Positions 2,830 through 24,964 of a stretch of DNA of 64,000 nucleotides are shown in pieces. The notes below the pieces were generated by a model, which saw only the letters and a list, made by a program, of their open reading frames with translations, had not been told where the DNA came from and made no database searches. A program made the position numbers and the translations under genes. Numbering within the stretch: position 1 is the first letter of the stretch; the number at the start of each line of letters is the position of its first letter. Origin of the DNA: Clostridia bacterium (GTDB taxonomy: Bacteria; Bacillota; Clostridia; Christensenellales; Aristaeellaceae); the NCBI GenBank assembly GCA_017936765.1, contig JAGBEX010000014.1:1-64000 (forward strand), read 5' to 3'.

Positions 2830-2892
2830 AACGAGCGCATTACGATGCAATAAGCCAATATGATAGATCAATATACGAAAGTAGGTATTGCA

Positions 2893-3891
2893 GTGGCAGC
2901 TACTTTGCAGGATGTGGCGCATCTGGCCGGAGTGAATCCATCTACCGTGTCCCGTGTGCTGAACGGAAAAAGTGTTATTTCTCCAGAAACGAGAGAGCGT
3001 GTTTTGGCGGCAATCGAGAAATTGGATTATCATCCCAATTCTCTTGCGCGCAGCCTGGCAAGTGGTCAGGCTGGTGCTATCGGTGTTGTGCTTGATGCAC
3101 AGGATGTGGGAGCCTTCCAGAACCCGTTCTTCTCTGCCAGCCAGTTTGCTATTGAGCAGTACGCCCAAGATCAGGGCTACCATGTGATGGTTGCCAATGG
3201 CGGCAGAAAATCTGGCAATGCAGTGGAACGTCTGGTGCTTGAACGCAAGGTGGATGGTCTGATTATGCCGCCCTCTACCGGACATCCGGAACTGCTGAAG
3301 AAGCTGATCCACTTCCCGTATGTCTTTCTTGGCCAGCCGGATGAAAACGGTGATGACTACAACTGGGTGGACATCGACAATGAATATGGTGCCTTGATTG
3401 CAGTTGAGCATCTGGTGTCCAAGGGATATCGCCGGATTGCTTATCTGGGTGGCTCTCAGCGGTCTGATGCAGGCTTTATCATGCGTCGTCAGAAAGGCTA
3501 TTTGAAGGGTATCCCAGAGGGAGAACTCCATTGGCTGCTTGCGACGGATGGCACCCCGGAAAATGCTTATGAGGTCGCCATGGCGTGTCTGCAAGGCGAG
3601 CAGCACCCCGACGCTTTCCTGCTGGATGACAACATGGCTGGTATTGGCCTGATCAAGGCTTGCCGCGAATTGGGACTGTCCATCCCGCAGGATATAGGCG
3701 CAGTGACGTTCAACAACTTCCCGATGGCCGCGTACACAGATCCGCCGCTGACTGCGATCGACATCAATACTGGACTTCTCGGTACGGAAACAGCGCAGAT
3801 GCTGTTTGAATGTATGAAGGAAGCGGAGGCTGGTCATCACAAACTGATCAAGCCATCCCTGATTGAGCGGGAGTCCACCCAGAAAAAATGA
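2893..3891 (+). CDS. LacI-family transcriptional regulator of maltodextrin use
   Basis: Binds the palindromic operators in this operon and probably releases them when a maltodextrin is present. The N-terminal helix-turn-helix is clear (TLQDVAHLAGVNPSTVSRVL), with the hinge helix region NSLARSLAS after it and a periplasmic-binding-protein-like effector domain filling the rest; 332 residues is normal for the family. I chose the GTG at 2893, preceded by AGTAGG, because LacI proteins start right before the HTH. An in-frame ATG at 2860 has no ribosome site. The stop is followed directly by the ribosome site of the GH13 gene, so the regulator is the first gene of the operon. The sugar effector is inferred from the neighbours. 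Confidence 0.93.
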   Translation: MAATLQDVAHLAGVNPSTVSRVLNGKSVISPETRERVLAAIEKLDYHPNSLARSLASGQAGAIGVVLDAQDVGAFQNPFFSASQFAIEQYAQDQGYHVMVANGGRKSGNAVERLVLERKVDGLIMPPSTGHPELLKKLIHFPYVFLGQPDENGDDYNWVDIDNEYGALIAVEHLVSKGYRRIAYLGGSQRSDAGFIMRRQKGYLKGIPEGELHWLLATDGTPENAYEVAMACLQGEQHPDAFLLDDNMAGIGLIKACRELGLSIPQDIGAVTFNNFPMAAYTDPPLTAIDINTGLLGTETAQMLFECMKEAEAGHHKLIKPSLIERESTQKK

Positions 3892-12430: not shown

Positions 12431-12859
12431 ATGTTTATCTGGCAAAGTTATGCACGGTATGCCTGGAATTTCGATCAGGTCGATACATTATTCAATGACA
12501 TATGGGATTTTACTGAAACCCGTGGCGGATCAAGGCGCAATGCAACCTACTTTCTGGGATGTGTTGTTTCATATGAGAACGCATCAGGCGAACAAGAAAT
12601 CATCGATGGTCAGCAGCGGATAACCTCTCTGTTCTTGCTTCTCCGTGCTATCTACACGAAGCTCGAAAATGGTGCACAGACACCACAATCTGATAACTTC
12701 CGAAAGCAGATTCAGGGCTGTATATGGCGCGCAGACAAACTTACCGGCAAAGTGGACTTCGATGATATTCTGTTGTCCTCCACTTCACAGGAGAAATCCG
12801 AACCTGATTCCAGTTGGAAGCGGGTTCGGATTTTTCTTTGGAAAATGAGACGCAAATAA
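12431..12859 (+). pseudogene. Remnant of a DUF262 (GmrS/ParB-like) protein
   Basis: The frame carries the DUF262 signature EIIDGQQRITSLFLLLRA and, upstream, ARYAWNFDQVDTLFNDIWDF, which matches the usual YQRxYxW...W-D region of GmrSD type IV restriction enzymes and related NTPases. Only about 140 residues are present, whereas family members have 400-700. The beginning is scrambled (the YQR motif is damaged), and after DDILLSS the frame runs into a terminator. It is a decayed fragment of a defence-type gene, likely non-functional. Confidence 0.6.
12794..12837 (+). terminator. Terminator ending the DUF262 remnant
   Basis: AAATCCGAACC pairs with GGGTTCGGATTT, followed by T-rich sequence. It overlaps the tail of the decayed frame and shows that the end of the original gene is missing. 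Confidence 0.7.
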
Positions 12860-12950: not shown

Positions 12951-14639
12951 TTAACCCTGCACAGCCTCCTTGGCATCTTCCTTGCCAAAGAGCTTCTTCA
13001 CGCCCTGCACGGCAACGATCACGCCCAGCACAAACAGCGCAATGGCAAAGCTACCCTGCAGCAGATCGCCGCCCAGGTTGGCGGTGGTGCCGGCGAAGAT
13101 GCCGCCGAACTTGCTCACAATGGTCATGCCCAGAGCGGTCAGCGTCACGGCCAGCATGATGGCCATGGGAGCCCACAGCATCCAGCCCTTGCGGTTGGTC
13201 CGCTTGAGGAACACCGCGCAGGCGATAAGCGCCAGGGCGCTGAGCAGCTGGTTGGCAGAGCCGAACAGGGGCCAGATGTTGGCATAGCCAGCCTTGGCCA
13301 GGGCGTACGCCATCACCAGGGTAGCGACGGTGGCGGTGTACTTGTTGGTGAGGAACTTCTTCACGGGGCTCATGTTTTCCTCGGTGTCGGTGGAATCCAG
13401 GAAGAACTCCTGGAAGGCCAGACGGCCGACGCGGGCCACAGAGTCCAGGGAGGTCAGGGCAAAGGCGGACACGGACAGGTTGATCAGCGTAAAGGCCACA
13501 TTCTGCGGGATGCCGATCTTGCCCAGGAAGCCGGAGATGGCGGAGGCAAACACCACGGCGGGGGTGCCGGAGGCCACCTGCGCACCGCTGGACACTGCGC
13601 CCACGGCGATCAGCGCGATCACGGCCAGCAGGCTTTCCATCAGCATGGCGCCAAAGGAGATGGGCAGCATGTGCTTCTCATTCTGCACCTGCTTGGAGGC
13701 GGTGCCGGAGGACACCAGCGAATGGAAGCCGGACACAGCGCCGCAGGCGATGGTCACAAAGAGGATGGGGAACATGTGCTGACCGTTGACGGTAAAGCCG
13801 TTGAAGGCGTTCAGGTTCATCTGGGGATTGGCAACGAACACACCCACCACCGCTGCGGCGATCATCGCCACCAGCAGGTAGCTGTTCAGGTAGTCGCGGG
13901 GCTGCAGCAGCGCCCATACGGGCACGATGGAGGCGATGGCGATGTAGACAAACACCAGCAGATGCCAGGTGCCGGTGGGCACATACATGGGCAGCGCCAT
14001 GCCAAGCACGATGCACAGCACCAGCAGACCCACCGCAACGGCGGTATTCACCAGCGGCTTGAAGCGGCACACCTTCAGCACGATGCCCAGCGTAACAGCT
14101 GCAAGGATGAACAGCATGGAGGTGGTCGCTACCTGGCCGTTGGCCAGGGAAACATCGGGCGTAGCGGCAAAGCCGTTGAAGGTGTTGGCGACCACGTCCG
14201 CAAAGGCGGCAACCACCAGGATGGAGAACAGCCAGGTGAACAGGGTGAAGAGCTTCTTGCCGATCTTGCCGATGTACAGCTCAATGATATAGCCGATGGT
14301 ACGGCCTTTGTTGCGGACGGAGGCGAACATGGACACAAAGTCCTGCACAGCGCCGAAGAACAAGCCGCCGACCAGCACCCACAGCAGCACGGGCACCCAG
14401 CCGAAGACAGCGGCCTGAATGGGGCCGTTGATGGGGCCGGCGCCGGCGATGGAGGCAAACTGGTGGCCGAAGACCACGCCGGGTGCGGTGGGGGTATAAT
14501 CCACGCCGTCCTCCATTTCATAGGCAGGGGTCTTGGCCTTGGGGTCTACGCCCCAGGTTTTGGCCAGCCAACGGCCGTAGAGAAGATAACCCGCTCCCAA
14601 CACAACAAGAGCGATGAGCATGATGGTGATCCCATTCAT
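12951..14639 (-). CDS. cstA: CstA-family carbon starvation transporter
   Basis: Polytopic membrane protein of 562 residues, the length of the short clostridial CstA type. CstA proteins import pyruvate or peptides. Typical segments are GPINGPIQAAVFGW, FVSMFASVRNKGRTIG and SGTASKQVQNEKHMLPISFGAM. I start at the ATG at 14639, preceded by AAAGGA. The frame stays open for 99 codons further upstream, but that stretch is the T-box leader and is not translated. It is a single-gene unit on the minus strand, flanked by accessory DNA on both sides. The exact substrate is not decidable here, although an amino-acid-sensing leader fits a peptide or amino-acid-linked role. Confidence 0.93.
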   Translation of the reverse strand: MNGITIMLIALVVLGAGYLLYGRWLAKTWGVDPKAKTPAYEMEDGVDYTPTAPGVVFGHQFASIAGAGPINGPIQAAVFGWVPVLLWVLVGGLFFGAVQDFVSMFASVRNKGRTIGYIIELYIGKIGKKLFTLFTWLFSILVVAAFADVVANTFNGFAATPDVSLANGQVATTSMLFILAAVTLGIVLKVCRFKPLVNTAVAVGLLVLCIVLGMALPMYVPTGTWHLLVFVYIAIASIVPVWALLQPRDYLNSYLLVAMIAAAVVGVFVANPQMNLNAFNGFTVNGQHMFPILFVTIACGAVSGFHSLVSSGTASKQVQNEKHMLPISFGAMLMESLLAVIALIAVGAVSSGAQVASGTPAVVFASAISGFLGKIGIPQNVAFTLINLSVSAFALTSLDSVARVGRLAFQEFFLDSTDTEENMSPVKKFLTNKYTATVATLVMAYALAKAGYANIWPLFGSANQLLSALALIACAVFLKRTNRKGWMLWAPMAIMLAVTLTALGMTIVSKFGGIFAGTTANLGGDLLQGSFAIALFVLGVIVAVQGVKKLFGKEDAKEAVQG

Positions 14640-14733
14640 TTGCAAAACATCCTTTCTGCTTTGTGTCTTCTCGCGCTTCTCTGGCATATGCGCCGCGGTC
14701 GCATCCGTCTGGAAAAGCGTTGCTATATATAAA

Positions 14734-14998
14734 AGCCCGTCCCTCACCGATCCTGAAAAAGGATCTGTAAGAGACGGGCTGTTCATCCCGCGATACCACT
14801 CTTCTTGCCGCATCCAGTGCGGCCTGCTCAGCCACATCGACCATAAACGGTGAATGTGCTCTCCTGTAACGTGGAGATAACGGTCTGACCTACCGCCCTC
14901 CCGATCCCGGGGGGGAGGTTTCAGCGGACTGCTCATGAGGGATACGCTGACCTTTCATGCTCGCCATGCCTCGCACCAACCGGCATTTCTCTGGGAAC
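14734..14998 (-). promoter_or_regulatory. T-box riboswitch leader of cstA
   Basis: On the minus strand, in order: the AGAGA motif and stem I with the apical GGUUGGUG-like hairpin (about 14998-14960), the stem I 3' side containing UGAGCAGUCC, CCGUUAUC, then the T-box sequence AGAGUGGUAUCGCGG (14789-14803), which pairs with the tRNA acceptor end. A terminator follows, AGCCCGUC/GACGGGCU with a U tract (14734-14780). Uncharged tRNA would favour the antiterminator and switch cstA on. By alignment from memory the specifier triplet may be AUC (Ile) at 14941-14943; this reading is tentative. Confidence 0.88.
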
Positions 14999-15053
14999 GC
15001 TGTGAAAGCGCGCGTGTCTCAATCACTGCATTGCGTATGTGGTTTATGTGTAT

Positions 15054-15083
15054 AAAATACGCCTGTTTTGCCCGATCTGTCAA
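15054..15083 (-). promoter_or_regulatory. Promoter of the cstA T-box transcript
   Basis: TTGACA (15078-15083 on the minus strand), 18-bp spacer, TATTTT (15054-15059). It lies about 50 bases ahead of T-box stem I. Confidence 0.6.
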
Positions 15084-23130: not shown

Positions 23131-23176
23131 AAAATTGTAACGTTTTCAAGAAGTTTGAAAAACTATATGTTACAAT
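23131..23176 (-). terminator. Terminator of cimA
   Basis: On the minus strand ATTGTAAC pairs with GTTACAAT, with an inner TTTTCAA/TTGAAAA stem, followed by TTTTT. It begins within the last codons of cimA and separates it from the sigma factor gene. Confidence 0.8.
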
Positions 23177-24750
23177 TTCGGACGATTATCGGCATAATAG
23201 GTGAGCATGAAGTCGATGGAGTCCACCAGCGCCTTGAAGCAGGCCTGGATGATGTTGCTGGAGACGCCCACGGTACTCCAGACGTGCTGGCCGTCGGTGG
23301 ATTCGATGGACACGCGCACGGTGGAGGCGGTGCCGCCCATGTCCAGCACGCGCACCTTGAAATCCTTCAGGCGCATATTGTTGATGGCCGGGTAGAAGTC
23401 CGCCAGGGTCTTGCGCAGGGCGATGTCCAGGGCGTTCACGGGGCCGTCGCCTTCACCGGCGTTGATGCCTTCTTTGCCGCCCACCTCCACCTTCACATAG
23501 GCCTGGGCGCTCTTGTCCACGGACTGCATATTCATGGGGCTGTGGCACAGCACGTGGAAATCTGCCACCTGGAAGAACTTCGGGCGGCGGCCAAGGGTAT
23601 CCAGCGCCATGAGGGCAAAGGAACCATCCGCATTCTCGTAGGTATAGCCGCGGGCCTCTTTTTCCTTCAGCCGGGCGATGACCTGCGCCATCTCGGCGCT
23701 GTCCCGGTTCACATCGGGCAGGATGCGGCTGAGACGGGCGTACACCCCGGCACGGCCAGCCTGATCGCTGATGAGGAAGCGACGCTGGTTGCCCACGCTT
23801 TCCGGGGGGATCTGCTCGAAGGTGGCGGCGTGCTTGATCACGCCGTCGATGTGCATACCGCCCTTGTGGGAGAAGGCGGTGTGGCCCACAAAGGGAGCGC
23901 GCTCGGTGAGGGAGAGGTTCATCACCTCGGCCACATAGCGGGCGGTGTGGGTCAGCATGGTCAGGTGGCCTTCCGGTAGGCAGGGCTGATGGAGCTTTAA
24001 TTCAAGAATAGGGATGATGGTACACAGGTCCGCATTGCCGCAGCGCTCGCCGATGCCGCCCATGGTACCCTGCACGCTGGTGGCACCCGACTGGATGGCT
24101 GCCAGGGAGCAGGCGGTGGCCAGGCCGCAATCGTTATGGCAATGGATGCCCACGGGGGCATCGAACTGCTGGCACACATCACGGACGATGGTAGCGACTT
24201 CATCCGGCAGGGAACCGCCGTTGGTGTCGCAGAGGGTGAGGCACTCGGCGCCGCCCTCCAGCGCGGCTTGCAGGGTGGACAGGGCGTAGGCGCTGTCGGC
24301 CTTGTAGCCATCGAAGAAATGCTCCGCATCGTACCAGACACGGAGGCCATGCTCGGTGAGGTAGGCAATGCTTTCGCGGATGATGCGCAGGTTTTCCTCA
24401 CGGGTGCAGCGCAGCACCTGCTCCACGTGCAGGATGGAGCTTTTGCCGAAGATGGTCACCATATCCACACCACAGGAAAGCAGCGCGGCCAGACCGGCGT
24501 CGCCCTCGGCCTGTTCGCCGGGGCGGATGGTGGAGCCGAAGGCCACCAGCTTGGCGTGGCGCAGGCGCTTGCCGCGGAACTCCGCAAAGAAGGCTGCGTC
24601 CTTGGGATTGGCGGCGGGGTTGCCGCCCTCGATGTACTGCACGCCCAAGTCATCCAGCGCCAGGGCGATGCGCTTTTTATCCTCCAGGGAGAAGGTGACG
24701 CCCTCCGCCTGCGCACCGTCGCGCAGGGTGGTGTCCAGGAGCTTGATCAT
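23170..24750 (-). CDS. cimA: (R)-citramalate synthase
   Basis: Condenses acetyl-CoA with pyruvate to citramalate, the first step of the threonine-independent isoleucine route. The N-terminal TIM-barrel motif [18 protein letters not shown] and the metal-binding [11 protein letters not shown] are intact, and a LeuA-type allosteric domain ends the protein ([20 protein letters not shown]). 526 residues matches the clostridial CimA group rather than 2-isopropylmalate or homocitrate synthases. The ATG at 24750 follows GGAGGG at 7 bases; an ATG-like start upstream has none. Single-gene unit with its own terminator. Confidence 0.9.
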
Positions 24751-24964
24751 CTTCCATCCCTCCGAAATCTGCAATGATGCTCTTATTATAGCATGATTTG
24801 TCGGCCTGTGGAAGATGCTGCGCCAAGGAAAATGCAGTCAACTTGCGGCGATATGGGGCTAATTGGTAAAAATCCTACGAAAGAAAACAGAAATGCGCTC
24901 TACCAAACATGATGGAATAAATCTATACTCATTGTAGGCATTTGTTATGAAAGGGGACTGCTTG

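What the first reader, a model, noticed from the sequence alone, without database searches (positions are those of the whole stretch)
12951..15083. cstA under a T-box riboswitch
The leader contains a complete T-box (stem I apical motif, T-box sequence, competing terminator). CstA is usually described as a starvation-induced pyruvate or peptide transporter, and control by uncharged tRNA would tie it to shortage of one amino acid. My tentative specifier is AUC (Ile). A branched-chain link would match the cimA gene 8.5 kb away.
Basis: partly seen in the sequence, partly recalled or inferred. Interest (0 to 1): 0.6.

Follow-up and report, generated by a model that had tools for sequence, protein, structure and literature searches.

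The report
Isoleucine T-box controls a cstA transporter
An RNA switch that senses uncharged isoleucine tRNA sits in front of a CstA transporter gene, and related gut bacteria keep such a switch on the same gene tuned to isoleucine, leucine or valine and nothing else, so this "carbon starvation" transporter is probably tied to the supply of branched-chain amino acids.

Summary
A full-length T-box leader (window 15035..14767, minus strand; Rfam RF00230, 65.9 bits, E 5.9e-14) with a strong -35 box, specifier AUC (14943..14941), UGGU bulge and competing terminator precedes cstA (14639..12951; PF02554, 485 bits). The score is below Rfam's gathering cut-off (93), but so are 12 of the 17 T-boxes in this genome, among them those of ileS, leuS, pheS and thrS. 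Reading specifiers by the same rule gives the right amino acid for this genome's synthetases. The base after the specifier is C instead of the usual purine, as in this genome's pheS leader.

Comparison settles the specificity. 31 other cstA loci from diverse Clostridia carry an intact T-box; every specifier is [A/C/G]UC: Ile 26, Leu 4, Val 1. One has the order Ile T-box, BASS-family symporter, cstA. One earlier report (Bacillus methanolicus cstA1) took such a T-box for a leftover.

Best reading: transcription attenuation sensing uncharged tRNA-Ile switches on a pyruvate-type 2-oxo-acid importer that feeds branched-chain amino acid synthesis. The RNA part is strong; the substrate is inferred. 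cimA is real but 8 kb away, without a T-box of its own.

The parts
15078..15083 (-). -35 box TTGACA
   Evidence: invariant in 8 close leaders
15054..15059 (-). -10-like TATTTT, 18-base spacer
14930..15030 (-). stem I with AGAGA bulge, GGUUGGUG distal loop and specifier loop
14941..14943 (-). specifier AUC (Ile); the following base 14940 is C, not the usual purine
   Evidence: Rfam alignment
14767..15035 (-). T-box leader, RF00230 model positions 1-219
   Evidence: 65.9 bits, E 5.9e-14
14770..14802 (-). antiterminator with UGGU (14798..14795), expected to pair with the tRNA NCCA end (discriminator A)
14734..14780 (-). intrinsic terminator competing with the antiterminator, followed by TTTATATATA
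   Evidence: -34.0 kcal/mol
12951..14639 (-). cstA, 562 aa, single copy in the genome, monocistronic
   Evidence: PF02554 485.5 bits; one match in the genome

Best explanation
A transcriptional T-box riboswitch controls cstA. Transcription starts near 15047. With charged tRNA-Ile, the leader folds the strong terminator at 14780..14734 and transcription stops. With uncharged tRNA-Ile(GAU), the anticodon pairs with the AUC specifier, the tRNA elbow docks on the AGAGA/GGUUGGUG distal motifs, and the 3' NCCA end pairs with UGGU; this stabilises the antiterminator and cstA is transcribed. CstA is then most likely an importer of pyruvate or a related 2-oxo acid that supplies carbon for branched-chain amino acid synthesis: pyruvate is a precursor of Val and Leu, and of Ile through citramalate. 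Shown: the parts, the specifier, conservation of the pairs, and restriction of cstA T-boxes to Ile/Leu/Val. Inferred: tRNA binding and attenuation (family knowledge), and the transported substrate. The confidence given is for the Ile T-box switch acting on cstA; the substrate step alone is about 0.5.
For: T-box at E 5.9e-14. Specifier control within the genome: AUG-metG, UGG-trpS, AUC-ileS, CUC-leuS, UUC(C)-pheS, GUC-valS, UCC-serS, ACC-thrS, CCC-proS. 31 other intact cstA T-boxes with Ile/Leu/Val only, spread over a CstA tree with several specifier changes. T-box(Ile)-BASS symporter-cstA order in L053. Paired-column support. CstA proteins of E. coli (PMC7730263, PMC5847655), Salmonella (PMC9504724) and Desulfovibrio (PMC10102598) are tied to pyruvate uptake or use. 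BrnQ, the usual branched-chain amino acid carrier, was not found in this genome.
Against: No expression data. C instead of A/G after the specifier. A tRNA-Ile(GAU) gene was not found in this draft genome (probably in an unassembled rRNA operon). The protein falls far below the NCBIfam cut-off for the E. coli-type pyruvate symporter (228 of 1188 bits), so the substrate may differ. No solved structure matches by sequence.
Confidence: 0.87

Rival explanations
1. Same switch, but CstA imports branched-chain amino acids themselves, or peptides rich in them, standing in for BrnQ.
For: Specifiers switch among Ile, Leu and Val but never leave that set, as expected of an importer of those compounds. 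BrnQ was not found here nor in 19 of 20 genomes with Ile- or Val-type cstA T-boxes tested; 5 of 16 genomes whose cstA has no T-box do have it (the genomes are related, so this is weak).
Against: E. coli CstA is reported to be very specific for pyruvate; only pyruvate and bromopyruvate competed (PMC7730263). Three of four genomes with Leu-type cstA T-boxes do have BrnQ.
Confidence: 0.35
2. The T-box is a leftover of another transcription unit and does not control cstA, as suggested for Bacillus methanolicus cstA1.
For: Suggested in PMC4342826 from a break in coverage between the start site and the start codon.
Against: Such a break is what attenuation predicts in rich medium. The arrangement recurs in many lineages with nothing between T-box and cstA, and promoter, leader and gene behave as one conserved block of about 2.1 kb whose flanks differ.
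Confidence: 0.04
3. The specifier is read in a shifted frame, UAU (Tyr) or UCC (Ser), because the base after AUC is C.
For: The usual purine after the specifier is missing.
Against: AUC sits where canonical cstA leaders have AUC followed by A; pheS of this genome also has its specifier UUC followed by C; leaders L031, L044 and L053 have AUC followed by C too. No cstA leader in canonical form reads Tyr or Ser.
Confidence: 0.03

Closest known systems
T-box riboswitch, Rfam RF00230, Ile class (such as ileS leaders)
   Same: All parts present: stem I, distal motifs, AUC specifier, UGGU bulge, antiterminator/terminator switch.
   Different: C after the specifier; a possible ACGC/GCGU helix in place of the usual AGUA/GAA motif; GC-rich, scores below the gathering cut-off; controls a CstA transporter.
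Bacillus methanolicus cstA1 T-box (PMC4342826)
   Same: T-box upstream of a cstA gene.
   Different: There not assigned to an amino acid and thought to be a residue of another unit; here with a specifier and conserved in many lineages.
CstA/BtsT pyruvate transporters of E. coli (TC 2.A.114)
   Same: Pfam family PF02554.
   Different: 562 versus 701 aa; far below the equivalog cut-off; E. coli cstA is controlled by CRP and at the translational level (PMC7730263), not by tRNA.

Membership tests
T-box leader (RF00230) | Stem I with AGAGA bulge and GGUUGGUG-type distal loop | tested here: met
T-box leader (RF00230) | Codon in the specifier loop matching a plausible amino acid | tested here: met
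   AUC; same register in 22 other leaders
T-box leader (RF00230) | T-box sequence with UGGN bulge | tested here: met
   AGAGTGGTATCGCGG with UGGU
T-box leader (RF00230) | Competing antiterminator and terminator | tested here: met
   overlapping stems -8.3 and -34.0 kcal/mol with U-rich tail; conserved pairing
T-box leader (RF00230) | Rfam gathering score (93 bits) | tested here: inconclusive
   65.9 bits, below the cut-off, but full-length at E 5.9e-14; 12 of 17 T-boxes of this genome are below it, and cstA leaders of relatives exceed it (L042 130, L044 125, L080 124 bits)
T-box leader (RF00230) | Response to uncharged cognate tRNA | not testable with these tools
   needs a reporter or in vitro transcription
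CstA family (PF02554) | Match above the curated cut-off | tested here: met
   485.5 bits versus 27
Pyruvate/proton symporter CstA (NF011590 equivalog) | Equivalog cut-off 1188 bits | tested here: not met
   228.2 bits; therefore not filed as this equivalog, only as a member of the wider family

The most novel reading that the evidence does not exclude
A clade of clostridial CstA proteins is a dedicated supply route for branched-chain amino acids (pyruvate, branched 2-oxo acids, or the amino acids themselves) and forms, with T-box-controlled acyl-CoA synthetases and in one case a BASS symporter, a branched-chain acquisition regulon that travels partly as a self-contained T-box-cstA cassette.
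Probability: 0.4. Interest if true: 0.6.

Novelty: new member of a known kind. Interest (0 to 1): 0.45.

Why it matters
CstA is named for carbon starvation and is known as a pyruvate or peptide carrier. A conserved tRNA-sensing switch restricted to Ile, Leu and Val gives independent evidence for what the clostridial branch is for, and names the starvation that should turn it on. It also suggests that the one published cstA T-box found here, taken for a residue, is probably functional.

Tried and rejected
Alternative specifier frames (Tyr, Ser) were rejected by alignment to canonical leaders. A tRNA-Ile(GAU) gene was sought by pattern and by similarity and not found in the draft genome, though it is present in a relative of the same order. 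A second hairpin after the terminator was considered as an extra control element; its pairing is not kept in L019, L020 and L075 and no second copy exists in the genome, so it is left as a note. No related solved structure could be found for a substrate test. Literature searches for a T-box with CstA found only B. methanolicus; two standard T-box surveys (Vitreschak 2008; Gutierrez-Preciado 2009) are not held, so an earlier listing of clostridial cstA T-boxes in their tables or in TBDB cannot be excluded.

Full report
What is there. On the minus strand, a TTGACA/TATTTT promoter (15083..15054) is followed by a T-box leader (15035..14767) and by cstA (14639..12951). A cmscan of the whole window at gathering thresholds shows no T-box; the E-value search of the leader shows one that covers the whole model, 65.9 bits, E 5.9e-14. 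The same search over the genome finds 17 T-boxes, of which only five pass the gathering score, so the missed threshold reflects GC-rich, divergent T-boxes of this lineage rather than a false positive.

Specifier. In the Rfam alignment the specifier columns hold AUC, and the next column, usually a purine, holds C. As a control I read the specifiers of the other T-boxes of the genome from the Rfam alignments and identified the genes behind them from their translations (four of them also by Pfam). The specifier agrees for metG (AUG), trpS (UGG), ileS (AUC), leuS (CUC), pheS (UUC), valS (GUC), serS (UCC), thrS (ACC) and proS (CCC); ilvB reads GUG (Val), and hisS reads overlapping GAC/CAC, an arrangement described for hisS-aspS (PMC4342826). 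The pheS leader also has C after its specifier, so this departure is tolerated in this genome. The synthetase names rest on my reading of the translations, not on a database match.

Relatives. A scan of genome contigs with the CstA protein gave 67 loci. Of 63 with the gene's 5' side, 30 have an intact T-box directly upstream, and in L053 an intact T-box (116.5 bits) precedes a BASS-family symporter that is followed by cstA. Specifiers: AUC in L018-L023, L075, L029, L031, L033, L034, L036, L038, L044-L051, L062, L073, L076, L080 and L053; CUC in L042, L059, L060 and L067; GUC in L026. Nine were also placed by the Rfam model (L029 has an insertion there and is read by comparison with L031). In an alignment of 23 leaders the second and third specifier bases are invariant U and C. 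L061 has lost stem I and L043 retains only stem I fragments and the terminator, so the switch also decays. T-boxes were not detected in about 30 other loci; L040 is cut off by the contig end.

Tree. In a maximum-likelihood tree of 61 CstA proteins, T-box carriers are spread over most of the main clade, with at least six forced changes for the Ile label and four for Leu. The switch is therefore old, or was gained often, and its specificity moved only among Ile, Leu and Val. Of the 16 other T-boxes of this genome six are branched-chain, so this restriction is unlikely by chance even with a handful of independent lineages; that estimate is rough.

Cassette. The window and its nearest relatives share about 2.1 kb, promoter to the end of cstA, while the flanks differ. 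Among 18 genomes of the genus, a T-box-cstA block close to the window's is present in this genome and two others; a third has cstA without the leader. Two genomes of another genus of the family carry the leader at 91% identity. Horizontal spread and repeated loss are both possible. There is one cstA in this genome.

Function. CstA proteins are pyruvate carriers in E. coli (PMC7730263, PMC5847655) and Salmonella (PMC9504724), and a Desulfovibrio member has a phenotype on pyruvate (PMC10102598). Pyruvate is a precursor of Val and Leu, and of Ile through citramalate (established pathway knowledge); the window has a citramalate synthase (23170..24774, TIGR00977). The BASS partner in L053 resembles families of which some members carry 2-oxo acids (TIGR00841 and PanS, both below their cut-offs). 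BrnQ was not found here. These facts favour a 2-oxo-acid or branched-chain supply role, but do not decide the substrate; the protein does not reach the pyruvate-symporter equivalog cut-off.

Novelty. The RNA is a member of a known family. What appears new, in the literature held, is that a T-box on cstA is a conserved arrangement with branched-chain specificity. The single report found, B. methanolicus cstA1, considered the T-box a probable residue of another unit because transcription breaks between start site and gene (PMC4342826); attenuation would give exactly that.

Noticed in passing
L015 (G000:C6:13094-13357, minus): T-box with Ile specifier AUC about 0.6 kb upstream of an AMP-binding acyl-CoA synthetase-like gene in the same genome; it could activate branched-chain acids for conversion to Ile.
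   Followed up: partly
L001 (G000:C39:295286-295536, minus): T-box with Leu specifier CUG upstream of a fusion of a xylose-isomerase-like TIM barrel and an AMP-binding enzyme.
   Followed up: partly
L053:1241-4460: Ile T-box (AUC followed by C), BASS-family symporter, then cstA in one orientation.
   Followed up: partly
window 14670-14720 (minus): GC-rich hairpin with a conserved ACCGCGG loop between terminator and cstA start codon; pairing is good in the window and L023 but not in all relatives.
   Followed up: partly
window 12778-12840: A palindromic element of about 60 bases that recurs elsewhere in this genome and in congeners at 82-96% identity on both strands.
   Followed up: no
L043 (about 2860-3000) and L061 (about 2700-2900): Decayed cstA T-boxes: one keeps stem I fragments and the terminator, the other has lost stem I.
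   Followed up: no
window 12431-12859: ORF with only an N-terminal GmrSD restriction-endonuclease domain (PF03235), probably a fragment.
   Followed up: no
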